A DNA stretch of 64,000 nucleotides from a virus. The position numbers were made by a program, and so were the translations under genes. The DNA lies in IMG/VR virus record IMGVR_UViG_3300045996_000607, positions 1 to 64,000 of that record; one strand, written 5' to 3'. A model generated the notes under the pieces. It saw only the letters and a program-made list of their open reading frames with translations, was not told where the DNA came from and searched no databases. Below are positions 1 through 60,738 of the stretch, piece by piece (the stretch's first letter is position 1; every line of letters begins with the position of its first letter).

Positions 1-473
1 GGCGTGTCCATGGCGATGATGCTGACCGAGCCGGGTGGCGCAAATGCCCTCGCCACCAGTCACCGCGTGATCAATCTCGGCTATTCGGGCAAGGGATGGC
101 AGACGCAGTACAACGCCACCGTCCGTCCGACCTCGCCCTATGGCTTCCTGCTGGGCGGCGGCAAGGATCGCGCGGTGTTCGGCGTCGGCCCCGGCGTGAA
201 CGACATGACTGCGGCGTCCGGCTGGCCCAAAACCAACGCAACTGCCGATCCCGGTGCCCTCACGGCTAACGATACCGTGGCGAGAGCGAACGAAGTATAC
301 GATACGGCGGGCACTCTGGACTCGGTTTTCACCGGCTCGATCAGCGCCGCGGTCCTCACCGTCACTGCCGTGACCAGCGGCGCTATCCGCGTGGGCATGT
401 CGCTCGATGTCAACGGAGGCACCCTGTTCATCAACTCGCTTGGCACGGGAACGGGCGGAACTGGAACCTACAA
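1..473 (+). repeat. Exact 473-bp repeat, left copy
   Basis: Identical base for base to 44772-45244. Identity stops abruptly at 473/474, after which the homologous reading frame diverges by about 6%. The repeat may extend left of the window. It lies inside the SGNH gene and is not bounded by inverted repeats or a transposase. Confidence 0.97.
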
Positions 474-894
474 TCTCAACACCTCCGCCACGGTGGCATC
501 GCAGACGATCACCGCGCGTCAGGGCGACGCGCGCCGAACGGTGACGAACCTGCTTACGCTCGGCTGGAAGGTGGCGGTTTCGGCAGAGATCAAGAACAAC
601 GGCGCGAACGACACCGGGAGCCCCTCACCCCTCGACACGCTGCGCGGCAAGCTGCTTGCCATGGCGGCTGATGTTCAGGCTGGCCCGGGTCAGACCTATG
701 ACGGCAAGTTCCGCGCGTTCGATAATCGGGAAATCGTGGTTGGCGGGCTGAAGATCTTCGGCACCGATGCCGTGTTCAGCACCGGCTATTACACCGATGG
801 CGTGCATCCGAACGACACGGGGCGCCCGTTCCTCGTGAGCGGCGGAACTACCCCGCAGCACGGCGTGAAGGCCAACATCGAGGCGCTTACCTGA
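1..894 (+). CDS. SGNH-hydrolase tail protein, 3' part only (genome 1)
   Basis: The reading frame is open from the first base, so the 5' part is missing. It carries two SGNH/GDSL hydrolase blocks: GVND (block III, near residue 66) and DGVHPN (block V, near the C-terminus, with the catalytic Asp-His pair). The nucleophile block GDS is absent here but present at the matching place of the complete copy at 43617-45665. Between the blocks sits a Gly/Thr-rich module containing GTGTGGTGTYNLN. The first 473 bases equal 44772-45244 exactly; the rest differs at about 27 of 420 positions, mostly silent. The likely role is a virion-bound carbohydrate esterase. If 1-44771 is circular, this is simply the end of the 43617 gene. 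Confidence 0.85.
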   Translation, partial: GVSMAMMLTEPGGANALATSHRVINLGYSGKGWQTQYNATVRPTSPYGFLLGGGKDRAVFGVGPGVNDMTAASGWPKTNATADPGALTANDTVARANEVYDTAGTLDSVFTGSISAAVLTVTAVTSGAIRVGMSLDVNGGTLFINSLGTGTGGTGTYNLNTSATVASQTITARQGDARRTVTNLLTLGWKVAVSAEIKNNGANDTGSPSPLDTLRGKLLAMAADVQAGPGQTYDGKFRAFDNREIVVGGLKIFGTDAVFSTGYYTDGVHPNDTGRPFLVSGGTTPQHGVKANIEALT

Positions 895-1832: not shown

Positions 1833-3216
1833 GGGCTTCCCGTTCGGGGAACTGCTCCCCGATCAGGCGCCATCGGGTCAGCTGATTGTGGCAGACGGGT
1901 GCTACCCCACGCCCAACGGCTATGCACCGGTGGGCTCCTTCAACCCTTTCACCCCCGCCCTGCCCGGCTTCCTTGGCGGCGCTGCTTTCGTAAGCTCGGA
2001 CGGCACTGCTGCGCTGATCGCCGGAACCCCGACGAACCTCTATCGCTACTCAGGATCGGCATGGAGCAGCCTTCTCGGCTCGCTCTCCGCAACCGTGTGG
2101 CGGTTTGGCCAGTTTGGCGACAACATCATCTCGGTCAACGGCGGAGATCCGGTCTCGTTCGATATTGCAGGCGGCACTGCGGCGCTTCTGGCGGGGAGCC
2201 CGCCACCGAGCGACATGGTGGCGATCGTTCGCGATTTCGTGCTGCTGGCGGGAGACCCGGACAACATCCTGCGCGTCACCTGGTCGGGCTTCAACGACAG
2301 CACGGAATGGACGCCCGGCACGAACCAGTCGGACTATCAGGATATGCTCTCGGGCGGCGAGGTGACCGGCCTTGCGGGCGGCGAGTACGGCATTGTCCTC
2401 CAGCGGCAGGCCATCAAGCGGATGACCTATGTCGGCGGGGAAGTGATTTTTCAGTTCGATGAGATCGAGAGCAACATCGGCTGCATGGCTAAGGGCAGCG
2501 TCGCTCAGGCTGGCCGGCTGGTGTTCTTCCTGTCCGAACGCGGATTCATGCTTTGCGACGGTAACAGCGCAACCCCGATCGGGGCCGAAAAGATCGATCG
2601 CACCTTCTTCGGCAGCTATAGCCGCGAGGATATCGTAAACAGCCTCACTGCGGCGATAGACCCGCGTCGCTATATCGTCGCGTGGGCGATGCCGGGGCGC
2701 CTGTGGCTCTATAACTGGCAAATCCAGCGCTGGGCCACGGTGACACTGGACGTGCGCTACACCTTTTCGGGGTTCACCGCGAACATCGATCTCGACAGCC
2801 TGGACGCGATTTACGGCAACCTCGACGCTATTCCGGTGTCGCTGGACGACCCGATCTTTCAAGGCGGGAACCCGCTGTTTCTCGTGGTCGACAGTACCGG
2901 GCTCGTCGGAACGCTCACCGGCGCCCATGTGGAGGCGGGCTTCACGATTGCCATGCTGGACTTCGGCGACCGGGTGCGGATGCGCTCGGGCAAGTTCGAC
3001 AGCGACACAACCAGTGCGCAACTGACCCTTGATGGGCGTACGCGGGCCGGCGATGGCGAGAATGAGCGCAATGCAGGATCGATGCGGTCGAACGGCGAAT
3101 TGCCAATCCGCTTCAACGCCCGGTATTTCAAGCCGACAATTACCATTCCTGCCGGTGAGGCGTGGACCTACGCCAAAGGGCTCGGCTTCTATTTCGAAGG
3201 AGGCGGCCGCAAATGA
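1825..3216 (+). CDS. gp10-like tail / DNA-stabilisation protein
   Basis: 463 residues, GTG start. Repeated beta-rich Gly-Gly segments and a conserved core (TWSGFNDSTEWT, QSDYQDMLSGGEVTGLAGG, GIVLQRQAIKRMTYVGG, FQFDEIESNIGC) match the P22 gp10-like family that follows the adaptor in short-tailed phages and closes the tail channel. The homologue at 49131-50555 shares these segments in order (TRKSDYNDFPDGGEITGILGG, LILQRNAVRRMAYIGG). The family call rests on motif pattern and position. Confidence 0.7.
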   Translation: MFKGFPFGELLPDQAPSGQLIVADGCYPTPNGYAPVGSFNPFTPALPGFLGGAAFVSSDGTAALIAGTPTNLYRYSGSAWSSLLGSLSATVWRFGQFGDNIISVNGGDPVSFDIAGGTAALLAGSPPPSDMVAIVRDFVLLAGDPDNILRVTWSGFNDSTEWTPGTNQSDYQDMLSGGEVTGLAGGEYGIVLQRQAIKRMTYVGGEVIFQFDEIESNIGCMAKGSVAQAGRLVFFLSERGFMLCDGNSATPIGAEKIDRTFFGSYSREDIVNSLTAAIDPRRYIVAWAMPGRLWLYNWQIQRWATVTLDVRYTFSGFTANIDLDSLDAIYGNLDAIPVSLDDPIFQGGNPLFLVVDSTGLVGTLTGAHVEAGFTIAMLDFGDRVRMRSGKFDSDTTSAQLTLDGRTRAGDGENERNAGSMRSNGELPIRFNARYFKPTITIPAGEAWTYAKGLGFYFEGGGRK

Positions 3217-3389
3217 GCTATCCCCGCATACCCAACAACGAACGCGACCCCGTCCGTTTCTTCCGGCGCGCAGCGGAGGCTATCAACTGGCTGATCGGCA
3301 AGGTTGAAGACCCCTATATCGGACAGGTCCGCTATGAGGCGGGCGTGCTCGAGCATTACGACGGCAGCGCATGGCAGCCGGTTCCTTAA
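3213..3389 (+). CDS. Small virion-module protein (58 aa)
   Basis: ATG overlaps the preceding stop (ATGA). The sequence begins MSYPRIPNNERDPVRFFRR and ends in a beta segment VLEHYDGSAWQPVP. No known domain recognised. Genome 2 has an unrelated collar-domain protein (50552-51013) at the same place, so this slot has been exchanged between the two phages. Confidence 0.7.
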   Translation: MSYPRIPNNERDPVRFFRRAAEAINWLIGKVEDPYIGQVRYEAGVLEHYDGSAWQPVP

Positions 3390-3769
3390 GCATCGGCATC
3401 TGGCCGTATGAACTGACCGACGAAATTATGGACTTCCTGAGGCCGGCTGCTGAACTGGGGCTCTGCGGCATCGAGAAAGGGCCCGGATGGTCAGTATGGA
3501 CCGTCCATAGCGAGCGTATGTTGCTGGGCGCCGCGAATGTGAGACGCACGACGGAACCGGCTGTCGAAGTGGTTCTCGTCGGCGGACATGATTGCCGTTC
3601 ATGGATCGGTGAGCTGGACCGCAAAATCGGCCTTTGGGCGAAAGACGAAGGAGCGACCTGCCTGCGCGCCTTCGGGCGCCGCGGCTGGGTCCGCATTCTC
3701 TGCAAACAAGGCTGGGTTGCCGTACGCGAAAGCCGCGGCATCATCGAGTACAAGCGAGGATTGACCTGA
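3371..3769 (+). CDS. Conserved tail-module protein, acetyltransferase-like end
   Basis: 132 residues. The C-terminal pattern CLRAFGRRGWVRILCKQGW resembles a fold recurring in phage tail operons that looks like the GNAT acetyltransferase core. The homologue at 51010-51402 keeps IIGRKGWARVLRGYGW and the surrounding hydrophobic pattern. No catalytic assignment is possible. The start overlaps the previous gene by 19 bases; the stop overlaps the next ATG (TGATG). Confidence 0.65.
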   Translation: MAAGSLSIGIWPYELTDEIMDFLRPAAELGLCGIEKGPGWSVWTVHSERMLLGAANVRRTTEPAVEVVLVGGHDCRSWIGELDRKIGLWAKDEGATCLRAFGRRGWVRILCKQGWVAVRESRGIIEYKRGLT

Positions 3770-4638
3770 TGGGCAAGAAGTCGAAGCAGAAGACGACGAA
3801 TGAGCCGTCTGCTTACGCGAAGGGCTATATCACGCCCGCCGCGGGCGCCCTCGGTAGCGCCTATTCTGCCAACCAGCCCCAGATCCAGGGCAGTGCCGAT
3901 GCCCTCTGGAAGCAAATCCCAGGCATGATGGAAAAGGCATTCACACCGTCTGCAACGGTGCTCGGTGCGAACACCAACCTGCAGGATGTACTCGCCGGAA
4001 AGTACCTCAATGGCTCCCCGCACCTGCAGGGCATCATTGACGACACGGCGGGCGATGTCACTGATCGCGTGCAATCAGCCTTTGGCCGCGCAGGGCGCAC
4101 TGGCAGTGGGGCAAATGCAGGCGTGCTTACCAAGGAACTGGCAAGCGCGGAGAACGGTCTGCGCTATAGCAACTACAATGCGGAACGTCAGGCGCAGATG
4201 CAGGCTCTCGGGCTCGTCCCCTCGATCGAAGGCGCACAATATGCGGGCATTGCCCCCACGTTGGCGGCGATGCAGGCCGCTGCCGGCATCCCGTTGGATG
4301 CGGCAAATGCATATGCCGGCGGCACCGGCAATCTGTTGGGGCAGTACAATACATCGACCACGACCAAGATCCCCGGGCTCGGCGAGCAATTCTCAATGCT
4401 GATGCAGAATGTGGGCAAGGTGGGTCAGGCTGCCGCAGTGTTCTCCGATCGACGGCTGAAGGCGAATATCGAGCGCGTAGGTACGCTTTCGGACGGGCTA
4501 GGTGTCTATGACTACGATTATGTCTGGGGCGGCGAGCGCCAGCGCGGCGTGATGGCCGACGAAGTGGCGCAGCTGCGGCCTTGGGCTCTTGGTGAACCAG
4601 TCAACGGCTTCGCTACCGTGCGGATGGAGGCGCTGTGA
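3769..4638 (+). CDS. Virion protein with S74-type C-terminal chaperone
   Basis: 289 residues from MGKKSKQK. The N-terminal two thirds are Ala/Gly/Gln-rich helix (FGRAGRTGSGANAGVLTKELASAEN) like the genome 2 protein 51395-52048. The last 65 residues carry SDRRLKANIERVG and GVMADEVAQLRPWAL, the hallmark of S74-type intramolecular chaperone domains that trimerise and often cleave themselves from tail fibres. The genome 2 homologue ends before this domain. ATG 3769 is preferred because it overlaps the upstream stop; longer versions start with Arg-rich sequence that is antisense-like. Confidence 0.75.
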   Translation: MGKKSKQKTTNEPSAYAKGYITPAAGALGSAYSANQPQIQGSADALWKQIPGMMEKAFTPSATVLGANTNLQDVLAGKYLNGSPHLQGIIDDTAGDVTDRVQSAFGRAGRTGSGANAGVLTKELASAENGLRYSNYNAERQAQMQALGLVPSIEGAQYAGIAPTLAAMQAAAGIPLDAANAYAGGTGNLLGQYNTSTTTKIPGLGEQFSMLMQNVGKVGQAAAVFSDRRLKANIERVGTLSDGLGVYDYDYVWGGERQRGVMADEVAQLRPWALGEPVNGFATVRMEAL

Positions 4639-5600
4639 TGGGACCGATGCCCGGCGGCATGTTCGGCGCAAAACCTCGCAAGTCGTTCTTCGATGAGATG
4701 CTGCCGCCCGCCGCCCTCCCACAGGACACTTCCCTGCCCCAGGTGGCCCCAATGCCTCAGGCTCCGAAGCTGGGCTTTCTCGACAAGCTGGGACTGGTCG
4801 GTGATGTCTTCACGGGCGATCCGGTGACGCAGCAGCGCCTCATGCAGCAGCAAGTGATGCAGCAGAAGCAGATGGCGCGTTATGAGCCCCAGGAGGTGGG
4901 TGGCAGTATCGTTCGCCTCAACCCGCAGTCCGGCCAGTATGAAACACTCTTTAGCGCACCGCAAAAGGAGCGCGCCCCGTACCGCTGGGAAGCAAATGAT
5001 GGCTCTCTGATGGAAATCGGTGAGGATGGGGCGCCGCGAGCCGTATATAAAGACCCCACGCCCAAGGTGCAGATGATCGCGGTCGATAACGGGGACGGCA
5101 CCAAGACATTGATGCCGTTCGCGAACGGCGTTCCGCTCGGGCAAGGCGGCGCTGCTCCATCGGGCGCCGTCCCCGCGCTTCCAGAGGGCTACAAAGTGCG
5201 TCCGAGGGGAGGTGCGGGTTCCGGCCCGGCGACCTTTCAACCCTCGTCCGTGATGGATTCCCTGATAGAGCAGGAAAGCAGTGGTCGCCCGGGCGTGCTC
5301 GGCCCGAAGACCCGGTACGGGCAGGCGCAGGGACTTACCCAGATGCTGCCGGCGACCGCTGAGGCCGTGGCAAAGAAGCTGGGGGTCCCTTGGCGGCCTG
5401 ACCTGATGACCGGCACCAGCAAGGCGGCTGCGGAATACCAGCGCGCGCTCGGGCAAGCCTATCTGGAAGAAGGCTACGGCGCGACCGGCAACATCCGTGA
5501 CGCGCTTCATTACTACCACGGCGGCCCCAATCGCCGCCTGTGGGGCCCCAAGACCCGCGGCTATGCCGACAAGGTCATCTCTCGCCTCGGGAGCAATTGA
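4638..5600 (+). CDS. Virion lytic transglycosylase (SLT domain)
   Basis: About 320 residues. The N-terminal half is Gln/Met/Pro-rich; the C-terminal 110 residues are a family-1 transglycosylase domain: LIEQESSGRPG with the candidate catalytic Glu, YGQAQGLTQMLPATA, and a late ALHYYHGGPNRRLW segment. It probably opens the peptidoglycan during DNA entry, as its place among ejection-type genes suggests. GTG 4635 is an alternative start. Genome 2 has here a different protein (52048-52620) followed by an M15-like peptidase, so the enzyme type was swapped. Confidence 0.8.
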   Translation: MGPMPGGMFGAKPRKSFFDEMLPPAALPQDTSLPQVAPMPQAPKLGFLDKLGLVGDVFTGDPVTQQRLMQQQVMQQKQMARYEPQEVGGSIVRLNPQSGQYETLFSAPQKERAPYRWEANDGSLMEIGEDGAPRAVYKDPTPKVQMIAVDNGDGTKTLMPFANGVPLGQGGAAPSGAVPALPEGYKVRPRGGAGSGPATFQPSSVMDSLIEQESSGRPGVLGPKTRYGQAQGLTQMLPATAEAVAKKLGVPWRPDLMTGTSKAAAEYQRALGQAYLEEGYGATGNIRDALHYYHGGPNRRLWGPKTRGYADKVISRLGSN

Positions 5601-13562: not shown

Positions 13563-13787
13563 CTAATTCCTGATAGCGCTGCTGGACGTGTCCCTGCGCG
13601 GGATCACATCACCGGGCCGCTCTCCGCACTTGCATCGCAGCCGGGCCTTGAGTTCATCCAGCGTGAGGTCGCCCAGCCGCTCGAGCAACTCCTTCGCGCT
13701 CATCACCCGGATACGCTTGCAGCCGGGCTTGTGGCAGCCGACGTGGACGTTCAGGCCGTCTGATATGAGGTGGGAGAGCTTTCTCAC
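13563..13787 (-). CDS. Small zinc-binding early protein
   Basis: About 74 residues from GTG 13787, chosen because it overlaps the upstream stop (GTGA) and matches the genome 2 start. Cysteines in CHKPGCKRIRV and LRCKCGE suggest one zinc site; the middle (AKELLERLGDLTLDELKARL) is helical. It is over 90% identical to 60431-60655, far closer than any tail gene pair, so it was exchanged recently or is strongly constrained. Confidence 0.75.
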   Translation of the reverse strand: MRKLSHLISDGLNVHVGCHKPGCKRIRVMSAKELLERLGDLTLDELKARLRCKCGERPGDVIPRRDTSSSAIRN

Positions 13788-13870
13788 CCCCACGCCATCC
13801 AGCAGGCGGCAAACACCAGCATACCGAAGAAGCCGCGGAGGAAGCGGCGGTCGGTGATTAGTGCGCGCAT
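13784..13870 (-). CDS. 28-residue membrane peptide
   Basis: ATG to TGA, overlapping the GTG of the zinc-protein gene. It ends GFFGMLVFAACWMAWG, a single hydrophobic helix. Genome 2 has the same peptide (60652-60738) ending MLVFAACWMALG with the same overlap, which supports translation. The genome 1 start lies where the TnpB element joins, so its upstream region differs. Confidence 0.65.
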   Translation of the reverse strand: MRALITDRRFLRGFFGMLVFAACWMAWG

Positions 13871-15200
13871 TCAGATGCTATAGCGTGGACAGAACGTTTG
13901 CGGAACGCTAGTGTTAGTCCGTGCTCGTCACCTACGTCTTCCGGGTTCGCCCAACCGCTGCGCAGTATGCGCGGCTTGACGAGATACTCCGAGACCAGCG
14001 CCATCTCTACAACGCCGCCCTACAAGAGCGGCAGGAAGGATGGCGCCGCGGTATCTCCATCTCCCAAAATGACCAGACCAAATCGCTGACCGAGATCCGG
14101 GCTTTCGATGAAGTATACGGCAGCCTGCCCTACAATCTCTCGAAATGGACACTTTGCCGACTTGAGGACGCCATGAGGGGCTTCTTCCGTCGCGTGAAGC
14201 GCGGCGCTCGCAGTGGCTTCCCTCGCTTCCGCGGCGCCGGTCGTTGGCGCAGCTTTGGGTTCTCTCAGAAGGATGGGCTCAGGCTTGTTGGTTCGACCCT
14301 CCGATTCAGCGGTGGGCTTGTCGGCGGACTGAAGATCAAGATGCACCGTCCCCTTCCTGAGGGGGCGCAAATCAAATCTGCGGTCTTTACCAAACAAAGC
14401 GGACGATGGCGGGCGGCACTGGCGATCGACATAGCGGTAGCCAGCAGGCATGAACTTCCGGGAACCGCAACAGGAATGGATGTGGGTATCGAAGCGATAG
14501 CCACGCTTTCGGATGGGAGTCGCTTTGCCAACCTTCGGGCCGGCACCCACCGTAAGGCCGCATTGCGTCGCGCCTCACGCGCTTTGGGTCGATGTAAGCG
14601 AGGTTCGCGGCGCCGCCTTAAGGCGCGCGCCCGTCTCGCTCGCCTCCAGCGGCTGGTTAGGCAGGCTCGAACCAACCACCTCCACCAAGTCTCTTCGGTA
14701 ATTGCGCGCGATTACGAATTGATTGTAGTCGAGGCTCTGAAGCTTCGGAATATGACCCGTTCCGCGTCCGGCACAGTTGACGCCCCGGGGAGCAACGTCC
14801 GGCAGAAGGCCGGTCTGAACCGCGCGCTGGCAGATGCCGCGCCGGGAAGGTTGATCGAGATGCTGCGCTACAAGGCTGAGAGGGCCGGTGGCGTGATGAT
14901 CGCGGTCGATCCGAAGCGGACATCGCAGGAATGCAGTTCCTGTGGTGAGATCGTAAAGAAGGCGCTGTCTGAGCGTCGTCACGTTTGCGCTTGTGGCGCA
15001 AACCTTCATCGCGATCACAATGCCGCGATCAACATATTAGCGCGCGGCCTTGCTGCGCACGGGGCTGTCAGGGGCCCCGGAGACGCCAACGTGGGACAAC
15101 AGTCCGTGCGTCGTCTCGGAACAGCGGAGCCGCTGGCGGCTTAGCCGCTAACGACCGTACCAAGATTGCCGCATCGATTCCGGCGCGTTGATCCCAATGA
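13871..15200 (+). mobile_element. TnpB-only IS200/IS605-type element
   Basis: Homology to genome 2 stops near 13857-13870, just before a hairpin TAGCGT...ACGCTA (13874-13903 approx.) typical of the left end of such elements, then tnpB. No tnpA is present. The right end is not fixed; a GCGGC-TTA-GCCGC hairpin spans the tnpB stop. In genome 2 the uninterrupted site continues with a 50-residue gene (60735-60887) that genome 1 lacks. Confidence 0.6.
13921..15144 (+). CDS. tnpB: TnpB RNA-guided nuclease
   Basis: 407 residues, GTG start. The RuvC triad is intact: Asp in GMDVGIEAIATL, Glu in IVVEALKLRNM, Asp in LHRDHNAAINI. A zinc ribbon has CSSC and CAC pairs near residues 340-365. The N-terminus is the usual wedge and helical part. 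TnpB cuts DNA guided by an RNA from the element's right end and helps the element persist. It sits against the leftward flow of neighbouring phage genes and is most likely a passenger. Confidence 0.9.
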   Translation: MLVTYVFRVRPTAAQYARLDEILRDQRHLYNAALQERQEGWRRGISISQNDQTKSLTEIRAFDEVYGSLPYNLSKWTLCRLEDAMRGFFRRVKRGARSGFPRFRGAGRWRSFGFSQKDGLRLVGSTLRFSGGLVGGLKIKMHRPLPEGAQIKSAVFTKQSGRWRAALAIDIAVASRHELPGTATGMDVGIEAIATLSDGSRFANLRAGTHRKAALRRASRALGRCKRGSRRRLKARARLARLQRLVRQARTNHLHQVSSVIARDYELIVVEALKLRNMTRSASGTVDAPGSNVRQKAGLNRALADAAPGRLIEMLRYKAERAGGVMIAVDPKRTSQECSSCGEIVKKALSERRHVCACGANLHRDHNAAINILARGLAAHGAVRGPGDANVGQQSVRRLGTAEPLAA

Positions 15201-15221
15201 CCATAATACAAACACCCCCGA

Positions 15222-15404
15222 TCAGCAGGGGCTATTGAGTTCGACGCCCAGAAAGCTGGCGAGGTTTGCGCGCGGAGTTCCGAAGCGCATGCATTCTTCG
15301 CACAGAGCAGACCAATGTTCCTTCTTGGCGCCGCAGTGCTCGCACATCGGCCGGTTGGCGATGATACGGTGTCGTAGGGTTGCGAGAGAGGGTTTGCCCG
15401 TCAT
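15222..15404 (-). CDS. Zinc-ribbon early protein (60 aa)
   Basis: Two CxxC pairs (MCEHCGAKKEHW and LCEECMRFG) form a zinc ribbon. The start overlaps the previous stop (ATGA). No family recognised; such ribbons are common in phage early operons and may bind nucleic acid. Confidence 0.7.
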   Translation of the reverse strand: MTGKPSLATLRHRIIANRPMCEHCGAKKEHWSALCEECMRFGTPRANLASFLGVELNSPC

Positions 15405-15856
15405 GATGAAGCTCCCATCCCTGCTATTTCAGCGTTGAGGGAGGGGGTGGAAGCGGCTCGGGCGCGTAGGGCGGCTGCGCAGATTGCGAGCGGGATTGTC
15501 GCGGCCCTCGCTCCGGCAGAGTACGGCTCCTCGGTCATCTCAAAGCCAGCACGTGGCGTTCGCTGATCTTCGCGAGAGTATCCGTAGGCAGCGGGGCTCA
15601 GCGGGGCACTGGCGCTCCACCACCAGTTCGGTTGCGCCAGAGTCATGGCGGCGTCGATAGAGCCGGTGAATGCGGGCAGCGTCCGTTTGTCCGCCACTAG
15701 AGGGCTTGCGTGGAACACCGTGGGTTCCTCGTCGCCGACAATGTAAATGCCGACATGCGCGTCAGGGTACAGCGCCTTGACGATCGCTGCATCAAGTTCC
15801 CGATCAGGCCCGGTCGCGGCCGTGCACAACTCAACCAATGCAAGAAGATCGCTCAT
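15401..15856 (-). CDS. Conserved early phage protein (151 aa)
   Basis: Contains ELCTAATGPDRELDAAI and FTGSIDAAMTL followed by ATIPLAICAAALRARA, a pattern frequent in early regions of alphaproteobacterial phages; function unknown. The first seven residues (MSDLLAL) and the end (TPSLNAEIAGM) are shared at DNA level with the otherwise unrelated protein 62502-62759 of genome 2, as if the middle had been swapped. Confidence 0.7.
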   Translation of the reverse strand: MSDLLALVELCTAATGPDRELDAAIVKALYPDAHVGIYIVGDEEPTVFHASPLVADKRTLPAFTGSIDAAMTLAQPNWWWSASAPLSPAAYGYSREDQRTPRAGFEMTEEPYSAGARAATIPLAICAAALRARAASTPSLNAEIAGMGASS

Positions 15857-16371
15857 GCTACACCTCCCAGGCGCGCTATCTCGGAAGAGGGGGTGGGGGC
15901 GTAGGATGCCTCCATAGCGGCTCGGAGTTCATCGTCGCTCAGGTCAGGCATTGCGCGGATGTGCTCCCACCTGATCAGACGAGCATCGGAAATGCTGTTG
16001 ATGTACGCTCGCAGATCATCCGTGAGGCGAAACCATTCGCCTTTTGGGCGGATGCGAGACTTCGCGAAATGACGGTGCAGTCGACCCTCTAGCCCTTCGT
16101 CCCCGGGGATCGTGGCGAGAACCTTGAGCTTCCCCGAGTTCGCGCATTGGAGTGTGCGAACGCGTGAAGCGAGATCACTCGTCCAGCCGATTTTGACCGT
16201 GCGCGAATTGCCAGCGCGGACGAAGTAGACGACGCCTGCCGCCGTTTCGTGTTTTCCACTCGCACCAAGAACGCCAGCCTTTTCAATGGCCGGTTTTCCA
16301 AGAACGGAAGGTGACTCTGGCGGATTTGCGTGCATGATGCCTATCGCAATTTTAAGTGGATATCGACGCAT
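15853..16371 (-). CDS. T5orf172 / GIY-YIG-like domain protein
   Basis: 172 residues. VVYFVRAGNSRTVKIGWTSD, TLQCANSGKLKVLATIPG and LEGRLHRHFAKSRIRPKGEW form the T5orf172 domain, related to GIY-YIG nucleases. The role is unknown; DNA binding or cutting is possible. ATG 16335 (MHANPPES) is an alternative start. The C-terminal SEIARLGGVA is reproduced in genome 2 as a 14-residue leftover frame (62971-63015). Confidence 0.75.
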   Translation of the reverse strand: MRRYPLKIAIGIMHANPPESPSVLGKPAIEKAGVLGASGKHETAAGVVYFVRAGNSRTVKIGWTSDLASRVRTLQCANSGKLKVLATIPGDEGLEGRLHRHFAKSRIRPKGEWFRLTDDLRAYINSISDARLIRWEHIRAMPDLSDDELRAAMEASYAPTPSSEIARLGGVA

Positions 16372-17659: not shown

Positions 17660-18051
17660 GGCGTTCCCTCCCCCACCCCCGCGCTGCCGGTCTTGCCGGG
17701 GCTGAGGGCTTGCAGGATCTTGTGCAGGTCGCGGAGATCAAGGATCGCGCCGCCCAACAGGATGTTGATCTTTGCTTCAGCATGGCCGCGGCATTCGAGC
17801 ATGACGTTGAAGGCCCACGCATCCACCGTCTCTGGATCGAGCGTCGATGCGACCGGGCGGGTGTTCCATGCGGCGATTGCTTCGGCTTGCGTCGGCACCC
17901 TCTCATTCAAAGCGCATGTTTCGTTGTTGCAGACCACCTGCCAGCGCGAATTTCCGAGGAAATTGCTAACATCCTCAAGTAGAGCCTCCCCGTCGCAGAG
18001 CGGACACGGCTTGATCTGCACCACCTCTGCCGGCGCGCTTGTTTCAGTCAT
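17656..18051 (-). CDS. Lar-like restriction alleviation protein
   Basis: 131 residues. The N-terminal 65 residues have KPCPLCDG, then CNNETCAL and TQAEAIAAWNTR, which is the Lar zinc-binding family. Lar proteins moderate host type I restriction by stimulating modification. The C-terminal 65 residues are an unrelated helical extension. ATGA overlap with the excisionase gene. Confidence 0.75.
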   Translation of the reverse strand: MTETSAPAEVVQIKPCPLCDGEALLEDVSNFLGNSRWQVVCNNETCALNERVPTQAEAIAAWNTRPVASTLDPETVDAWAFNVMLECRGHAEAKINILLGGAILDLRDLHKILQALSPGKTGSAGVGEGTP

Positions 18052-18271
18052 GGCGGCGCTCCCCTATCTGCAAGCAGCGGGGACGCTCGCGTTTAGCCTG
18101 CGCACGTTCTGCGGCGCGGCGTTGCTGGCGCGTCATGGTGCCCTCGGGGATGGGTTTGCCGCTAGGCTTGAGGCGCGGCTTCGGCTTCGACACGCTCAGT
18201 GCAGGCGCCTCCGCCAAAGCCCCCAATGCGGCCAATCCGGCAAGGCCCGACAATCCGACCAAAGTACGCAT
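18044..18271 (-). CDS. Small membrane/basic protein (75 aa)
   Basis: Start at ATG 18271 behind a purine-rich GGAGG-type site. N-terminal hydrophobic helix (LVGLSGLAGLAALGALA), then a Lys/Arg/Pro-rich tail (MTRQQRRAAERAQAKRERPR). No family recognised. TGATG overlap with the upstream gene. Confidence 0.6.
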   Translation of the reverse strand: MRTLVGLSGLAGLAALGALAEAPALSVSKPKPRLKPSGKPIPEGTMTRQQRRAAERAQAKRERPRCLQIGERRHD

Positions 18272-18852
18272 CACCCCTCCTCCCTCTGTTCGTTGCTGGC
18301 ATCGTCCCGCCCTCCGTCGTTGGGGGTGGCTTTGAGGGCGTCCCTGCACATATCCGCCATTTCGCGGTTGCGATCGGCCTTCTCATCACCGTCGGCGGTG
18401 CACTTCAGCCGGTGGCACTGCTCGTAGAAATCGAACTTGTCGGCGCACTTGCCCAACGCCTCCCGAAGCCGCTCCAAAGCCTCCCCCGTCTCGCCGCTAT
18501 GGGAGGGGGAGAGTTCTTTCACCGCTCGACGCACAGGCCCGTCGTGCCCGAGCGCTTCAGCACGGCGCATCGCCTTCTTGAGAATTGCCGACCCGATTTC
18601 ATCGCGGATCGCGCGCGCCAATGCCTTGTCCATTTTACCGGCTGCGTGCATCGCGTCTGTGATCGCCGAAAGGAGATCCACACCCTCCAGTGATTGGGCC
18701 GGCATTGCGGCTGCGGGTTCGGTGAAGGCGGCGAGGATGGCATCGATCGCTACCTCAACCGGCACCAGCGGACCGGGTGTTTCCGGCCATGGCTGGGCCT
18801 CAAGAAGCGCCCGCGCTTTGCGAGCGCGTGTTTCCAGATCATCGGCTGACAT
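18271..18852 (-). CDS. Early helical protein, unknown function
   Basis: 193 residues, mostly charged helix, with short modules typical of phage early operons (IDAILAAFTEPAA; CRDALKATP). The segment VEVAIDAILAAF recalls the end of 24076-24741 (LADAILAAFTPD). No catalytic motif seen. Confidence 0.65.
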   Translation of the reverse strand: MSADDLETRARKARALLEAQPWPETPGPLVPVEVAIDAILAAFTEPAAAMPAQSLEGVDLLSAITDAMHAAGKMDKALARAIRDEIGSAILKKAMRRAEALGHDGPVRRAVKELSPSHSGETGEALERLREALGKCADKFDFYEQCHRLKCTADGDEKADRNREMADMCRDALKATPNDGGRDDASNEQREEG

Positions 18853-19333
18853 TTTTCCGGGGCCTCTTCTTCTCTGGAGGAATGGCGTTGTCGCGCACTC
18901 TGTTGTGGGTCATTGCCTTGCACACCTTGCACTGGCGCCATCCCTGCGGACGGATCTGCAAGTTGTCGTTCTCGAACGGATGCCCTCGCGCACAATGGGT
19001 TTTGCGGGCATTGACGGCGGTTGGGCCTATTCCGCGGAGCGTGTTCTCTTTTGGGGTGACGGCCTCCAAGTGCTGGGGATTGACGCATCCCCGATTGCGG
19101 CAGAGGTGATCGATATGCTTCCCCTCGGGGATCGGGCCGACGACCAACTCGTATGCGAAGCGGTGGGCCGGTACGTTAACCCCGGGCGACACTGCGAATG
19201 ATCCATAGCCATTCCCGTTGTCAGTGCCCGCCCACTGCCAGCACTGATAGGGGCCTGCCATAGTCACCTTGGACCAGAAACGAGCAGTTCGCTCCGCTGA
19301 CCCGCTCCGCGCCTCGGATCGGGAGTTGGTCAT
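18839..19333 (-). CDS. HNH homing endonuclease
   Basis: 164 residues. HRFAYELVVGPIPEGKHIDH, LCRNRGCVNPQHLEAV and KENTLRG form the HNH_3 homing-type nuclease; a zinc pair (HCARGHPFEN; CKVC) follows. Such genes spread by cutting alleles that lack them. A second one lies at 26821-27378; the two share the layout but little sequence. Confidence 0.85.
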   Translation of the reverse strand: MTNSRSEARSGSAERTARFWSKVTMAGPYQCWQWAGTDNGNGYGSFAVSPGVNVPAHRFAYELVVGPIPEGKHIDHLCRNRGCVNPQHLEAVTPKENTLRGIGPTAVNARKTHCARGHPFENDNLQIRPQGWRQCKVCKAMTHNRVRDNAIPPEKKRPRKNVSR

Positions 19334-19503
19334 AGGGAGGTGTCCTTGGTGGCGCGCAATGCGGCAGCTACGGCGGCATAGTTCGCGGCTTCGGTCAGAG
19401 CGCGGTCACGGCTCGTATTACCCGGCGGCAGTTTGTAGTGATGGCGGATCGCAAGCAGCATCGAATGATCGCACCGCTCGATTAGTGTCTCTCGCTCTGT
19501 CAC
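19330..19503 (-). CDS. Small early protein (57 aa)
   Basis: GTG start overlapping the previous stop (GTGA); its own stop overlaps the HNH start (ATGA). The sequence contains LIERCDHSMLLAIRHHY and ANYAAVAAALRATKD. Coupling on both sides supports it as a real gene. Function unknown. Confidence 0.6.
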   Translation of the reverse strand: MTERETLIERCDHSMLLAIRHHYKLPPGNTSRDRALTEAANYAAVAAALRATKDTSL

Positions 19504-20315
19504 TCCCCCTCCTCCGCTTCGGGCTGCGGGGTCGCGGGGGCGAGGGCTTTTCTGGCATCAGCGCGGGCGCTCAGCGTGTCGTACTGCCAGTCGCCAGCCC
19601 AATCAGCGTCGATCCCGCTCGCGTTGGCAGGATCAAACAGCGGCCAAGCCATATTCACATCATAGCTTTCGTCGCAGTATCCAGCGGCAGACGGCCCGGT
19701 TTCCTTTAGTTCTCGCGCGTCCCATCCGGCTTCGAAGGCCTCCCGAATCCTATCCACCAAATCCCCACCCGGCTGCACTGCCGGGGTAACGCGGCCCGAT
19801 CCTCCGCACCGCATGCAGGGATGATCGCCGTCATCAATGTCTCCGACGCCAGCGCAGTGCCCACATTCGATATCGGGCACGGACGGCTGCACTGCCGGGG
19901 CGGAGATAAGGGCGGCTTCAAGGGTGTCTCGCACCTTGTTGATCCAGTGCTCGGCGAAATCGAGATGGTCGGTGATAAATCCGCCGTCTGGGCCTTCCTC
20001 GCCCTTGGCCTCCTGAATGAGCGCCGTTGCCTGATCGAGATCGCCGATCAACGCCCGCAAATCCTGCCCGGAGGATGCTGCTGGCGGGGTCTTCGGGGTG
20101 TAGGCGACAACCTTGTAGTCGCCAGCGAAGCCTAGCCAGCGCTCATCTCCAGCGCGGTCTGGTGACGCCATGGTACGCCAGCCGCTCACACTCTCCATGA
20201 GCACCGGACCGCCGTTCCAATCCGCGGGCGCCCTGTCGTCGCCGTGCCAAGGCTTCATGCCAGCCGGAATATCCTCCCCCGAGGATGCGATGGGGGGCGT
20301 TTGGGGAGCGGTCAT
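19500..20315 (-). CDS. Early protein with DnaJ-type zinc motif
   Basis: 271 residues from ATG 20315. Residues 15-75 (IPAGMKPW ... YKVVAYTP) match a stretch of the genome 2 protein 62502-62759 (IPVGMKAY ... RVAYTP). The centre has CGHCAGVGDIDDGDH and CMRCGGSG, a zinc site like that of DnaJ. The segment TPPIASSGED recurs as TPPAASSGQD, so the N-terminal part may have grown by duplication. Function unknown. Confidence 0.65.
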   Translation of the reverse strand: MTAPQTPPIASSGEDIPAGMKPWHGDDRAPADWNGGPVLMESVSGWRTMASPDRAGDERWLGFAGDYKVVAYTPKTPPAASSGQDLRALIGDLDQATALIQEAKGEEGPDGGFITDHLDFAEHWINKVRDTLEAALISAPAVQPSVPDIECGHCAGVGDIDDGDHPCMRCGGSGRVTPAVQPGGDLVDRIREAFEAGWDARELKETGPSAAGYCDESYDVNMAWPLFDPANASGIDADWAGDWQYDTLSARADARKALAPATPQPEAEEGE

Positions 20316-24741: not shown

Positions 24742-25210
24742 GGTCAGCGTCCTTCATGAAGACGATCCAGTGCGTCTTGGCCGCGCTTCCCGACCGGTGT
24801 CCGAACAACGGCTTCTCGGGCGTCATCGAAAGCACGGTCTTCACCGACACCCGATGCTCGTTCCATTTGAAGATCAGCGTTCCACCGGGGCGCAGGACGC
24901 GGAAGCATTCGGCAAATCCGGCCGTGATCTGCTCGCGCCAGCCGGGTTCTAGCCGCCCGTACTTCTGCGCCATTGCGCTATTCACACCATTGAAGGTGTG
25001 CGGCGGATCGAACACGACGAGAGAGAATGCGTCGTCTTCGAACGGCAGGTCAGTGAAGTCGCCGAGCACGTCGGGATTGACCACCACTTCGCGTCCGCGT
25101 GGATCGGTGCAGACCTCCCGCCGCTTGTCGAGAAAGAGTGCGCGCGCATCCTCCTTGTCGAACCAGAACATGCGCGAACCGCAGCAGGCGTCTAGAACAC
25201 GCGCGCTCAT
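24728..25210 (-). CDS. SAM-dependent methyltransferase
   Basis: 160 residues. Motif I-like VLDACCGSRMFWF, an acidic loop, then LVVFDPPHTF (DPPH, resembling the DPPY of DNA amino-methyltransferases) and AECFRVLRPGGTLIFKWNEH. No target-recognition domain, so the target is unknown. It may modify phage DNA against restriction; two other methylases lie in the rightward operon. Confidence 0.75.
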   Translation of the reverse strand: MSARVLDACCGSRMFWFDKEDARALFLDKRREVCTDPRGREVVVNPDVLGDFTDLPFEDDAFSLVVFDPPHTFNGVNSAMAQKYGRLEPGWREQITAGFAECFRVLRPGGTLIFKWNEHRVSVKTVLSMTPEKPLFGHRSGSAAKTHWIVFMKDADHADQ

Positions 25211-25737
25211 CGCTCCCCCTCCCCGTTAGCGGCGGACAGGGCGGCGAGGGCCTGGGAAGCTATCTCCGCCTCTTCGCTGACCTCTTCAAAGTCGACGTAT
25301 CCGCCCTCAAGATCGTACATGTCGCCGACGCGCTCGGTGCGCTTGCGTGTGCCGACCTCAACGATCCGCTCCAAGGCCTCCACAAGCTGCGCGTTATCCG
25401 GCACAGACGATGCCGGGGCTGCGAGGGCGTGTTGCGCCTCAAGCACCAACTCGGCCAGCCGATCGTGATTGATCGAAAGCGTGTTGCGCCGGTTCTTGCC
25501 GCCATCGGTCAAGGCAATGACGAAATCCTGCAACAGCCGACGCTCGACCCCCGCCGCCTGCTCTTTGGCGTGGGCGAGGCGGTGGCGGGCGAAGGCTTGA
25601 ACCTCATCCTGATTATCGCACCGACCGGCCAAGATTGACGCGCACCAACCAGCAGCCAGTGAACCGTTCTGCGCGTACACCAGCTTTTCAGCGGCTTCGC
25701 GGTCGGCTTGGATTACGGATGCTAGTTCGCGTGTCAT
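25207..25737 (-). CDS. Early helical protein (176 aa)
   Basis: Start at ATG 25737 (MTRELASVIQAD) because it overlaps the upstream stop. Helical, with LVYAQNGSLAAGWCASI and VERRLLQDFVIALTDGG. No family recognised. Confidence 0.6.
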   Translation of the reverse strand: MTRELASVIQADREAAEKLVYAQNGSLAAGWCASILAGRCDNQDEVQAFARHRLAHAKEQAAGVERRLLQDFVIALTDGGKNRRNTLSINHDRLAELVLEAQHALAAPASSVPDNAQLVEALERIVEVGTRKRTERVGDMYDLEGGYVDFEEVSEEAEIASQALAALSAANGEGER

Positions 25738-26042
25738 GCGCCGCGCTCTGACGCTCTGAGGATCGCCCGCCATTGATGCGTGCAGGTGCCGCCAGCCGTG
25801 CAGTTGACGAGAACTGCGGCAGGGGTGTCAGCGCCGAACGCTGGTGGAACGGGCTTTCTTGTGTGGTGCAGAACGTGGTGCCTGCATCGCGGGCAAGTTC
25901 GCGCGATCATGGTATCTCGCTCGCCCGCCGGGGTCGCGGTCTGCGGATCGGGGGTGTGAGCGGTGGGCGATGGGTAGCCGTGCTCCATCCAAAGGCGGCA
26001 ATCTTCGTCACCGCAAATGCAGGGCGATGTTTGCTCCCCCAT
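25734..26042 (-). CDS. Zinc-binding early protein (102 aa)
   Basis: Start at ATG 26042; GTG 26045 possible. CICGDEDC, CPRCRHHVLHH and CTAGGTCTHQW give three Cys clusters, with RTCPRCRHHVLHHTRKP like a zinc ribbon. Function unknown. Confidence 0.65.
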   Translation of the reverse strand: MGEQTSPCICGDEDCRLWMEHGYPSPTAHTPDPQTATPAGERDTMIARTCPRCRHHVLHHTRKPVPPAFGADTPAAVLVNCTAGGTCTHQWRAILRASERGA

Positions 26043-30518: not shown

Positions 30519-30679
30519 CCGCCTCACCAGACTGGCGGGTCTACCACGCCCACATGCTCCACTGCGCCCGTCAGGCGAAGAAGCCCGTAGTCAAGGCGAT
30601 GTGGCTGAACGGTGCCGCTCGAGCACGTCGCGAGATGCAGAAGGCCAAGACGCCGGTGCAGGGGAGCTTGTTCGCATGA
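30515..30679 (+). CDS. Small early protein (54 aa)
   Basis: ATGA-coupled on both sides. Contains WRVYHAHMLHCARQAKKPVV and ARREMQKAKTPVQGSLF. The reading frame is tight with its neighbours. Function unknown. Confidence 0.6.
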   Translation: MTASPDWRVYHAHMLHCARQAKKPVVKAMWLNGAARARREMQKAKTPVQGSLFA

Positions 30680-30882
30680 GCCCCGTCGCAGCACCCGGCA
30701 TCTACGCGCGCACGGCGGAGCGCTTTCCGTACCTCTCGCACCGCACGGTTGACGAGACCGGATACAGCTCCGGCGACCTGTTCTGCACCCCTGATCACGT
30801 CAGCACCGTCCCTATCCTGATCGGCTTCGGGGCGCCTGACTGCTGGGAATTCCGCTTCATCATTCCGGGAGATGGCCGATGA
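30676..30882 (+). CDS. Small early protein (68 aa)
   Basis: Starts MSPVAAPGIYARTAERFPYL; contains DHVSTVPILIGFGAPDCWEF, beta-rich. Coupled to both neighbours by ATGA overlaps. Function unknown. Confidence 0.6.
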   Translation: MSPVAAPGIYARTAERFPYLSHRTVDETGYSSGDLFCTPDHVSTVPILIGFGAPDCWEFRFIIPGDGR

Positions 30883-33375: not shown

Positions 33376-34453
33376 TGCCAAGCGCTACGAGTTTCTGTGG
33401 CGGGCTCGCGACCAGATAAACCGGGTATCGCGGATCGTTCTCGCGGTCGATGACGACGCAGCCGGCAAGGCACTGCGCGCGGACCTGATTGCGCTGCTCG
33501 GCGCCGATCGCTGCAGCTTCGTGGAGTACCCGTTCCCTGCCAAGGATCTGAACGAAGTCCTGCTCGAGCATGGCGCCGATGCGGTTCACAAGGCGCTGCG
33601 CGAAGCCAAGCCGGTCCCGGTCGAAGGCCTTTATCGGCTCAGCGACTTCCCCGACATGCCCGAGGTTCGCGGTATCCCGCTCGGCATCGACGCGCTGGAT
33701 GGCAAGATCGAGATCGTGGCCGGCACCCTCACGGTGTTCACCGGCTATGCCAACATGGGCAAGACGACCGTGACGAACACGATTGTAGCCCATGCCATCA
33801 TGCGCGGGTTCAACGTGTGCCTTGGCAGCTTCGAAACGCTTCCCAAGCCGATCCTTCGCGACCAGCTCGCACAGGCGCTCATCGGCTGCTCGCGCTACGA
33901 GTTCGCCGGGCATCCTCAACGCAAGGCGGCATACGAGACGCTGGAGAGGCAGATCCGCATCATCAGCAATTCGCTGAACGAGGATCTGGAGATCGACATC
34001 AACGGCCTGCTTGAGCTCGCTCGCACTGCCGCAGTTCGCGACGGGTGCAAGCTGTTCATCTTCGACCCCTGGAACGAGGTCGAGCACAAGCGCCGCGGCG
34101 ATGAGACTGTTACCGAGTATGTCGGCCGCGCCATTCGCGCAGTGAAGCGCTTTGCCCGGATGCACAACGTCGCGGTCTGGATCGTGGCGCACCCGACCAA
34201 GCCGCAGAAGGGCGTCAACCAGATGCCCAGCCTGTACGACGTCTCGGACTCCGCGAATTGGTCGAACAAGGCCGATTACGGGCTGGTCTATCACCGCAAG
34301 GACAAGACCAGGAACGAGGCCCAGCTTGCCGTCGTGAAGGTCCGCATGGGCCTCCCGGGCGAGTGCTGCTGCGAGACGGTGTTTCTGGATCAGCGCACGG
34401 GCCGGATTGCCGGTTCGCACCCCCTCCCCGACAGCATGAAGGAACAGGCATGA
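33017..34453 (+). CDS. Primase-helicase, Toprim and DnaB-like domains
   Basis: 478 residues from MHPKHAAWIEARG. Toprim part: WVLCEGEWDAMVALDL and RIVLAVDDDAAGKALRADL. Helicase part: Walker A in TVFTGYANMGKTTVTN, Walker B in CKLFIFDPWNE, and WIVAHPTKPQKG. This is the T7 gp4/Twinkle layout with the zinc domain in the preceding frame. It would unwind DNA and, if the zinc part is supplied, prime synthesis. The frame extends upstream to 32948. Confidence 0.85.
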   Translation: MHPKHAAWIEARGISAGLAAKLGLETVDRSGAKWLAVPYVEHGRTVNHKYRLTSEKRHMMDPDAPLVLWNLDGLERAAETGQPWVLCEGEWDAMVALDLGWDASSVPNGAPSTESDDPANAKRYEFLWRARDQINRVSRIVLAVDDDAAGKALRADLIALLGADRCSFVEYPFPAKDLNEVLLEHGADAVHKALREAKPVPVEGLYRLSDFPDMPEVRGIPLGIDALDGKIEIVAGTLTVFTGYANMGKTTVTNTIVAHAIMRGFNVCLGSFETLPKPILRDQLAQALIGCSRYEFAGHPQRKAAYETLERQIRIISNSLNEDLEIDINGLLELARTAAVRDGCKLFIFDPWNEVEHKRRGDETVTEYVGRAIRAVKRFARMHNVAVWIVAHPTKPQKGVNQMPSLYDVSDSANWSNKADYGLVYHRKDKTRNEAQLAVVKVRMGLPGECCCETVFLDQRTGRIAGSHPLPDSMKEQA

Positions 34454-34788
34454 GCGAACTAGCTTCAGCCGAGTGGCCGTTTAGCGGTCTGACAAACGCG
34501 GAGATCGAGCGCCTCGACATGCTTTCGGAGGAGGCCGCGGAAATCATCGTGGCGGTGTCCAAGATCAAACGGCACGGTCCGTACAGCTACAACCCGGACA
34601 AGCCCGACGATGGCGACAACGCGGCCCAGCTGAACAGCGAGATATCAGACTTGTTCGGGGTGTTGCTCGGAATGGCAGAGGCCGGGGACCCATTTCATGT
34701 CGGCAGCATCGCCCAGCATCGCGCAGCTTGGACGAAAAAACTTCGGTACTCACACCATCAGGAGAACGCCCGTGCCCATGTATCGTAA
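34450..34788 (+). CDS. MazG-like nucleotide pyrophosphohydrolase
   Basis: 112 residues from ATG 34450. LDMLSEEAAEIIVAVSKIKR, then SEISDLFGVLLGM give the Glu/Asp pattern of all-alpha NTP pyrophosphatases found in phages. It might clean nucleotide pools or lower alarmones. Start overlaps the helicase stop. Confidence 0.65.
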   Translation: MSELASAEWPFSGLTNAEIERLDMLSEEAAEIIVAVSKIKRHGPYSYNPDKPDDGDNAAQLNSEISDLFGVLLGMAEAGDPFHVGSIAQHRAAWTKKLRYSHHQENARAHVS

Positions 34789-35264: not shown

Positions 35265-35509
35265 GCGAGATGGAGTGGTTCTTCGACTGCCCGCAATGTG
35301 GGCACATCGGCACCATGGCAGACATGCGCGAGCACCCTACTCGCCCAGTCGCAATGGACCTTGGCTTCTGCCCGAAATGCGGAGGCGAGATCGAGGAGTT
35401 GATCTCTGAGGATCAGGTTCGCGCGCTGATGATCGAGTATGGCGACGATCCTGATGCCGAGATGGCCGCGATCAAAGCCAACCCCCGCAAACCACCGGCG
35501 CAGGAGTGA
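35261..35509 (+). CDS. Zinc-ribbon protein (82 aa)
   Basis: GTG start in the previous stop. FFDCPQCGHIGTMADM and LGFCPKCGGEIEEL form a four-Cys ribbon; an acidic helix follows. Function unknown. Confidence 0.65.
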   Translation: MSEMEWFFDCPQCGHIGTMADMREHPTRPVAMDLGFCPKCGGEIEELISEDQVRALMIEYGDDPDAEMAAIKANPRKPPAQE

Positions 35510-35512
35510 GTG

Positions 35513-35653
35513 ATGGCGCGTAAACTAGGCGGCTCTAGGCCGGTCACGCTCCGAAATGCCTCAAAACTGCCCAACGCAGGCCACTGGACGCGATTTGAGG
35601 GTGAAGTGGGACAATCCCTCACAATCAGCGCGAACACGCCACACGGGCTTTAA
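35513..35653 (+). CDS. Small basic protein (46 aa)
   Basis: ATG 35513 to TAA 35653. Starts MARKLGGSRPVTLRNASKL and ends in a beta-like QSLTISANTPHG. No family recognised; codon use fits its neighbours. Confidence 0.45.
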   Translation: MARKLGGSRPVTLRNASKLPNAGHWTRFEGEVGQSLTISANTPHGL

Positions 35654-60430: not shown

Positions 60431-60655
60431 CTAATTCCTGATAGCGCTGCTGGACGTGTCCCTGCGCGGGATCACATCGACGGGCCGCTCTCCGCACTTG
60501 CATCGCAGCCGGGCCTTGAGCTCGTCCAGCGTCAGGTCGCCCAACCGCTCGAGCAGTTCCTTCGCGCTCATCACCCGGATACGCTTGCAGCCGGGCTTGT
60601 GGCAGCCGACGTGGACGTTCAGGCCGTCTGATACGAGCGTCGAAAGCTTCCTCAC
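60431..60655 (-). CDS. Small zinc-binding early protein (genome 2)
   Basis: 74 residues, GTG start. GCHKPGCKRIRVMSAKELLE and LRCKCGERPVDV; over 90% identical to 13563-13787. Stop lies at the end of the inserted block. Function unknown. Confidence 0.75.
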   Translation of the reverse strand: MRKLSTLVSDGLNVHVGCHKPGCKRIRVMSAKELLERLGDLTLDELKARLRCKCGERPVDVIPRRDTSSSAIRN

Positions 60656-60738
60656 CCCAACGCCATCCAGCAGGCGGCAAACACCAGCATGCCGAAGAAG
60701 CCGCGGAGGGTGCGGCGGTCGGTTAGCAGGCGGGTCAC
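60652..60738 (-). CDS. 28-residue membrane peptide (genome 2)
   Basis: GTG start overlapping the upstream stop (GTGA), stop overlapping the next GTG. Ends FFGMLVFAACWMALG. Equivalent of 13784-13870. Confidence 0.62.
   Translation of the reverse strand: MTRLLTDRRTLRGFFGMLVFAACWMALG

What the first reader, a model, noticed from the sequence alone, without database searches (positions are those of the whole stretch)
13871..15200. Intact TnpB element in a phage, replacing an early gene
TnpB keeps its whole RuvC triad and zinc ribbon, without tnpA. A hairpin marks the left end at the exact point where homology to genome 2 breaks; the gene present there in genome 2 (60735-60887) is missing. The guide sequence after the right end would show which allele it targets, perhaps the empty site of related phages.
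Basis: partly seen in the sequence, partly recalled or inferred. Interest (0 to 1): 0.6.

Follow-up and report, generated by a model that had tools for sequence, protein, structure and literature searches.

The report
SOS-box TnpB element in a phage
A phage genome carries a seemingly working RNA-guided DNA-cutting gene whose relatives sit inside small transposons of an unexpected type and behind DNA-damage (SOS) switches, suggesting that the cutter is turned on when the host's DNA is damaged.

Summary
The TnpB gene is real (13921-15144, +) and intact: D187/E271/D365, zinc ribbon, no tnpA in the contig. The claimed left-end hairpin is not above chance, and 'replacing an early gene' overstates ordinary mosaicism between two phages. 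Alignment to relatives (58-62% identical: Bosea plasmids, Sphingomonas) plus a strongly covarying omega-RNA fold, whose pseudoknot pairs a fixed loop with the element's last bases, puts the right end at 15202. The predicted guide is ATAATACAAACACCCCCGAT; it does not match genome 2, and no empty site was found in IMG/VR. Two things were not in the finding. (1) Intact relatives lack IS605/IS607 ends: they have GG-starting terminal inverted repeats and exact 8-bp target duplications, like DDE-type non-autonomous elements. The window copy's right terminus resembles them; its left end is degenerate, without duplication. (2) An alphaproteobacterial LexA box (GAACN7GAAC) lies between the -35 and -10 sites of tnpB. 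Six of the 14 nearest relatives also have one (0.06 expected), often differing in sequence, position or orientation. Best reading: an SOS-inducible, guide-carrying TnpB element moved in trans by an unidentified transposase. Whether it cuts its own empty site is untested; no shared TAM was seen.

The parts
13865..15202 (+). TnpB element, best estimate of its extent (1338 bp); right end well defined, left end approximate
   Evidence: Right end from alignment to relatives and pseudoknot. Left end from position and 8/12 match to the Sphingomonadaceae terminal repeat, weak
13865..13876 (+). candidate left terminal repeat GCGCATTCAGAT (uncertain)
   Evidence: 8/12 to GGCTATTCGGAT, 27 bp before the LexA box as against 26 in L176; its match to the window's own right end is reached by 12% of random pairs
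13886..13891 (+). -35-like hexamer TGGACA
   Evidence: sequence, 17-bp spacing to TAGTGT
13892..13906 (+). LexA-type box GAACGTTTGCGGAAC
   Evidence: conserved in relatives; form matched by recA boxes in relatives' host genomes
13909..13914 (+). -10-like hexamer TAGTGT
   Evidence: sequence
13921..15144 (+). tnpB, 407 aa, GTG start; D187, E271, D365 and zinc ribbon present
15045..15150 (+). structured part of the predicted omega RNA, overlapping the 3' end of tnpB
   Evidence: covariation
15067..15070 (+). pseudoknot loop GTCA, pairing with TGAC at 15198-15201
   Evidence: the same loop is complementary to the last bases in seven other elements
15191..15202 (+). right terminus ATCCCAATGACC (complement GGTCATTGGGAT, 9/12 to the sphingomonad repeat)
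15203..15222 (+). predicted guide segment (16-20 nt) ATAATACAAACACCCCCGAT
   Evidence: inference from the right end; unique in the window
13784..13870 (-). flanking phage microprotein gene, 28 aa
   Evidence: conserved with genome 2
15222..15404 (-). flanking phage gene of 60 aa, no counterpart at this place in genome 2

Best explanation
The window holds a non-autonomous mobile element that encodes an intact RNA-guided nuclease (TnpB) and, overlapping the 3' end of its gene, the omega RNA whose guide is read from the DNA next to the element. Transcription of tnpB is repressed by the host's LexA and released by DNA damage, which is also when a prophage is induced. Elements of this lineage move as TIR units making 8-bp target duplications, so an unidentified DDE-type transposase acting in trans (not TnpA) moves them. 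Once expressed, TnpB would cut DNA matching the flank, for instance an allele lacking the element, so that repair copies the element in. Shown by sequence: intact protein, RNA fold and right end, LexA-box motif, TIR and duplication in relatives. Inferred: LexA repression, transcription, cutting, homing, mobilisation in trans, and that the window copy once had the same ends.
For: Protein intact. Omega RNA: 35 pairs, 96.1% of cells paired, 15 pairs with change on both sides, covariation 0.450 against 0.172 shuffled, 0/500; slid versions at most 0.114. Pseudoknot: the loop 21-22 nt before AACGT is complementary to the last element bases in eight elements, with different base sets (GGCTA/TAGCC, GGTCA/TGACC, GTACTG/CAGTAC, and GTCA/TGAC in the window). 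LexA box: 8 of 195 non-redundant TnpB loci have it within 120 bp upstream of the start (0.84 expected); excluding the window, 6 of the 14 nearest have it (0.06 expected), in both orientations and at -27 to -60. recA of two sphingomonads and a Phenylobacterium has the same box form nearby. GTTCN7GTTC is the published Caulobacter LexA motif (PMC12700426). TIR plus exact 8-bp duplication in L167 (CTTTGTTA), L168 (CTTACAGC), L169 (GAAATGTC), L013 (AAACACAA), L226 (CTCCCTAA), against 9 of 1329 mismatched pairs.
Against: The window copy has no target duplication and a weak left repeat, so it may be a stranded, end-decayed copy. Its host is not known. No autonomous transposase with these repeats was found. 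The bases before the duplication differ at each insertion (gtgg, tcga, tgtg, ggag, cccg), so no shared TAM is seen, which weakens the homing step. The nearest relative, L082, has only a degenerate box. Box-bearing members are partly related by descent. All is sequence inference.
Confidence: 0.68

Rival explanations
1. An ordinary IS1341-type (tnpB-only) remnant of an IS200/IS605 element, once moved by Y1 TnpA and now passively carried by the phage; the box and repeats are coincidences.
For: No tnpA in the contig; TnpB of the general IS605 kind, similar to ISDra2 TnpB; weak ends in the window copy.
Against: Intact close relatives have TIRs and 8-bp duplications, which Y1 elements do not make; LexA boxes in 6 of the 14 nearest relatives.
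Confidence: 0.17
2. A phage-domesticated TnpB, no longer mobile, kept as an SOS-induced weapon against rival phages or as a regulator, with the guide in the phage flank or inside the element.
For: Intact nuclease in a phage that has an integrase; LexA-type box; no target duplication; prophage-borne TnpB derivatives (TldR) are known to be domesticated (PMC13418256).
Against: The RuvC site is intact, unlike TldR; relatives sit on plasmids and chromosomes as mobile elements; the guide has no match in genome 2; no sibling phage keeps the locus.
Confidence: 0.1
3. The GAACN7GAAC motif is another promoter feature rather than a LexA site: the element is real but not SOS-controlled.
For: Motif seen by sequence only; part of the conservation among the window, Bosea and sphingomonad copies can be common descent.
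Against: The spaced 4-mers are kept while the seven bases between them differ; L169, L220 and L221 carry the complementary form, two of them at other distances; the spacer of the promoter is filled by the box; recA in related hosts has the same form.
Confidence: 0.15

Closest known systems
TnpB of IS200/IS605 elements (ISDra2 TnpB, PDB 8bf8/8ex9/8h1j)
   Same: Protein domains, RuvC triad, zinc ribbon; predicted omega RNA overlapping the gene's 3' end and ending at the element boundary, guide from the flank
   Different: Relatives' ends are TIRs with 8-bp target duplication; no tnpA; LexA-type box in the promoter
IS1341-type tnpB-only elements (PMC9956272)
   Same: About 1.3 kb, tnpB only, no transposase
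   Different: IS1341 is filed by IS605-like ends without target duplication; intact relatives here have TIR and duplication
Fanzor1 and Fanzor2* in eukaryotic TIR transposons (PMC10711439)
   Same: TnpB-type nuclease as the only gene of a non-autonomous TIR element with target duplications; RNA scaffold tied to the transposon end
   Different: Bacterial; unrelated repeats; 8-bp duplication; LexA-type box
TldR, prophage-borne TnpB-like repressors (PMC13418256)
   Same: TnpB lineage in a temperate phage
   Different: TldR has a dead RuvC; here it is intact

Membership tests
RNA-guided TnpB nucleases | TnpB domain architecture over curated cut-offs | tested here: met
RNA-guided TnpB nucleases | RuvC D-E-D triad and zinc ribbon | tested here: met
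   D187, E271, D365 invariant; C338/C341/C356/C358
RNA-guided TnpB nucleases | omega RNA over the gene's 3' end | tested here: met
   covarying fold and pseudoknot; transcription itself not testable here
RNA-guided TnpB nucleases | guide-dependent DNA cleavage with a TAM | not testable with these tools
   needs an assay; no TAM apparent at five insertions
IS200/IS605 (and IS1341) elements | Y1 transposase tnpA | tested here: not met
   none in the contig; IS1341 lacks it by definition
IS200/IS605 (and IS1341) elements | hairpin ends, no TIR, no target duplication | tested here: not met
   relatives have TIR and 8-bp duplication; no significant left hairpin in the window
DDE-type non-autonomous (MITE-like) elements | TIR and fixed-length target duplication | tested here: inconclusive
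   met in L167, L168, L169, L013, L226; the window copy has a right terminus only and no duplication
DDE-type non-autonomous (MITE-like) elements | an autonomous partner with the same TIR | tested here: inconclusive
   ISL3 transposases and repeat searches found no partner
LexA/SOS regulon | host-type LexA box overlapping the promoter | tested here: met
   the phage's actual host is not known
LexA/SOS regulon | LexA binding and damage induction | not testable with these tools
   needs experiment
TldR | inactivated RuvC | tested here: not met
   triad intact

The most novel reading that the evidence does not exclude
A lineage of bacterial TnpB elements has left the IS605/IS607 way of life: it spreads as TIR elements with 8-bp target duplications, its omega-RNA pseudoknot doubles as the transposon terminus, and its nuclease is under host SOS control, so that RNA-guided cutting is coupled to DNA damage and prophage induction.
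Probability: 0.5. Interest if true: 0.75.

Novelty: new variant of a known kind. Interest (0 to 1): 0.56.

Why it matters
How TnpB nucleases survive outside Y1 or serine-recombinase transposons, and how their cutting is timed, are open questions. This lineage offers a bacterial parallel to Fanzor capture by cut-and-paste transposons, and a simple, testable switch (LexA) that would make an RNA-guided nuclease damage-inducible. Full-text searches of the held library found no paper that links TnpB to LexA control.

Tried and rejected
Hairpin at the left end: not above shuffles. Rfam: nothing relevant. ISL3 as the mobilising family: suggested by resemblance of the repeats, but there is no ISL3 gene in the relatives' replicons except one broken fragment, and ISL3 loci sampled from the class carry no matching repeats. 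Repeat searches in plasmids and 385 genomes found only the TnpB copies, a solo repeat and weak matches without an identified autonomous element. A first estimate of the right end at 15208-15209, with an apparent 8-bp repeat CAAACACC, was dropped: that repeat also lies in genome 2, which has no element, and alignment and pseudoknot place the end at 15202. The guide in sibling phages: none. Flanking genes in IMG/VR: none. Flank DNA in plasmids and phages: none. DNA of the region in phages: none. Structure prediction was not run: the sequence evidence for the fold was already strong.

Full report
What is there. The window is the first 64 kb of an 86,291-base IMG/VR record. At 13921-15144 (+) lies a 407-aa ORF that matches the three TnpB domains of Pfam above cut-off and NCBIfam's RNA-guided TnpB model at 244 bits against a cut-off of 100. 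It aligns over nearly its whole length with the ISDra2 TnpB structures. The catalytic residues D187, E271 and D365 are invariant among its closest relatives, and the window protein keeps a C338/C341/C356/C358 zinc ribbon. No Y1 transposase lies in the contig. The left-end hairpin is not: DNA folds of the region are no better than shuffles.

Context. The contig joins two related phages. Bases 1-127 repeat at its end, and 1-887 is 97% identical to 44772-45658, so 'genome 1' (1-44771) and 'genome 2' (44772-86164) are probably two phages fused by assembly through a shared stretch of about 2 kb. Homology of genome 1 to genome 2 runs through 13563-13855 and includes a 28-aa membrane-like microprotein whose start codon (13868-13870) abuts the element. 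To the right, a 60-aa phage gene ends at 15222. This is mosaic module exchange rather than the replacement of one gene, and it lies between lysozyme and integrase.

Relatives. The nearest TnpBs are on two Bosea plasmids (61% and 60%; L167, L168), in Sphingomonas pituitosa (59%, L082; sister in the tree with support 100/97) and split over two contigs in another sphingomonad (L175, L176). Most viral relatives are 46% identical or less over their length; annotated phage records are all under 60%, the best-placed one 37%.

Ends. A scan for inverted termini flanked by an exact 8-bp direct repeat picked out L167 (CTTTGTTA, splitting a nucleoside-monophosphate-kinase gene), L168 (CTTACAGC) and L169 of Methylobacterium aquaticum (GAAATGTC), plus the viral loci L013 (AAACACAA) and L226 (CTCCCTAA). 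Pairing each upstream region with another locus's downstream region gave hits in 9 of 1329 trials. All five begin with GG and the repeats extend about 20 bp. The sphingomonad copies have GGCTATTCGGAT at the left and its exact complement at the right. Such ends with fixed-length duplications point to a DDE-type transposase working in trans; none was identified. L013 and L226 share nearly the same terminal repeat although they lie in distant parts of the TnpB tree, which suggests repeated capture of TnpB genes by such ends.

The window copy. Its right end...CCAATGACC at 15202, aligns with these termini. Its left end is only suggestive: GCGCATTCAGAT at 13865 matches 8 of 12 bases of the sphingomonad repeat at the expected distance from the promoter, but 12% of random pairs match each other as well as its own two ends do, and there is no target duplication. 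It may be a stranded copy.

Omega RNA. The end of the gene and the following region form a shared RNA fold in six elements: 35 pairs, 96.1% of cells paired, 15 pairs with change on both sides. None of 500 shuffles reaches the percentage paired, the number of double changes or the covariation score (0.450 against 0.172), and sliding the partners destroys it. In window coordinates the fold covers 15045-15150. In eight elements the loop 21-22 nt before a conserved AACGT is complementary to the last bases of the element, with different letters in different elements (GGCTA/TAGCC, GGTCA/TGACC, GTACTG/CAGTAC; four pairs, GTCA/TGAC, in the window). This pseudoknot resembles the one shown experimentally in ISXfa1 (PMC10711439). 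It gives the RNA scaffold and the transposon the same last base, and fixes the right end at 15202 independently of the repeats.

Guide. The predicted guide is therefore ATAATACAAACACCCCCGAT (15203-15222). It is unique in the window and matches genome 2 at no more than 13 of 20 bases. The 21 exact 16-mer matches in IMG/VR are, by my estimate, about what chance gives, and share neither extension nor left flank with the window. The bases before the five duplications (gtgg, tcga, tgtg, ggag, cccg) show no common TAM.

SOS box. GAACGTTTGCGGAAC (13892-13906) lies in the 17-bp spacer between TGGACA and TAGTGT just before the start codon. GAACN7GAAC, read from the other strand GTTCN7GTTC, is the LexA motif of Caulobacter (PMC12700426), and the same form lies near recA in the relatives' host genomes G001 and G562 and in a Phenylobacterium. 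In 195 non-redundant TnpB loci the box occurs within 120 bp upstream of the start in 8, against 0.84 expected from its frequency in the same loci. Leaving out the window, where it was first seen, 6 of the 14 nearest relatives have it against 0.06 expected. L167, L168 and L176 carry the GAAC form and could have inherited it; L169, L220 and L221 carry the GTTC form, the last two at other distances, so it was probably kept or gained more than once. L082 keeps only a degenerate version.

Mechanism. Shown by sequence: an intact nuclease, its omega RNA fold, a defined right end, a host-type LexA box over the promoter, and TIR-type mobility of the lineage. Inferred: repression by LexA, expression on DNA damage and prophage induction, guide-dependent cutting, and copying of the element into cut alleles. 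The homing step is the weakest because no TAM is seen.

Known and new. The protein is an ordinary TnpB and the RNA an ordinary omega RNA. TIR elements carrying a TnpB-type nuclease alone are described for eukaryotic Fanzors (PMC10711439). Searches of the held library found no bacterial counterpart with 8-bp duplications and no paper tying TnpB to LexA. That library is incomplete, so this is a new variant of a known kind and not proof of priority.

Noticed in passing
window 1-887, 44772-45658; contig 86165-86291: The 86-kb record seems to be two related phages (about 44.8 and 41.4 kb) fused in a circle by assembly through a shared stretch of about 2 kb; bases 1-127 repeat exactly at the contig end.
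   Followed up: partly
window 13784-13870 and 60655-60729 (minus strand): A 28-aa, probably membrane-spanning microprotein (MRALITDRRFLRGFFGMLVFAACWMAWG) conserved between the two phages beside a conserved 74-76-aa gene.
   Followed up: partly
window 15416-15449, 15849-15885, 17826-19786, 30674-30720, 34422-34457, 35482-35542 and their counterparts in 62.5-79.5 kb: Islands of about 30-60 bp, mostly 100% identical between the two phages, amid unlike sequence; at 15.4 and 15.85 kb they encode shared C-terminal tails (TPSLNAEIAGM, SEIARLGGVA). Possibly recombination boundary sequences.
   Followed up: partly
window 25836-25850: A second LexA-type box, GAACGCTGGTGGAAC, about 60 bp upstream of the minus-strand ORF 25207-25773.
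   Followed up: no
L013 around 4001-5127 and L226 around 3001-4160: Two TnpB genes from distant parts of the tree sit between nearly the same terminal repeats (GGGATTTATATACATGAC), each with its own 8-bp duplication: the same ends carrying different nucleases.
   Followed up: partly
L191 around 1501-1525 (Bosea RAC05 plasmid, 526997-527021): A solo copy of the element's terminal repeat (GGCTCTTCGTCATTCGAGGTTGACG) next to an AbiEii-type gene, without tnpB.
   Followed up: partly
L190 (Methylobacterium aquaticum plasmid around 1186162): A second, degraded copy of the TnpB element with exactly the same right terminus as L169.
   Followed up: partly
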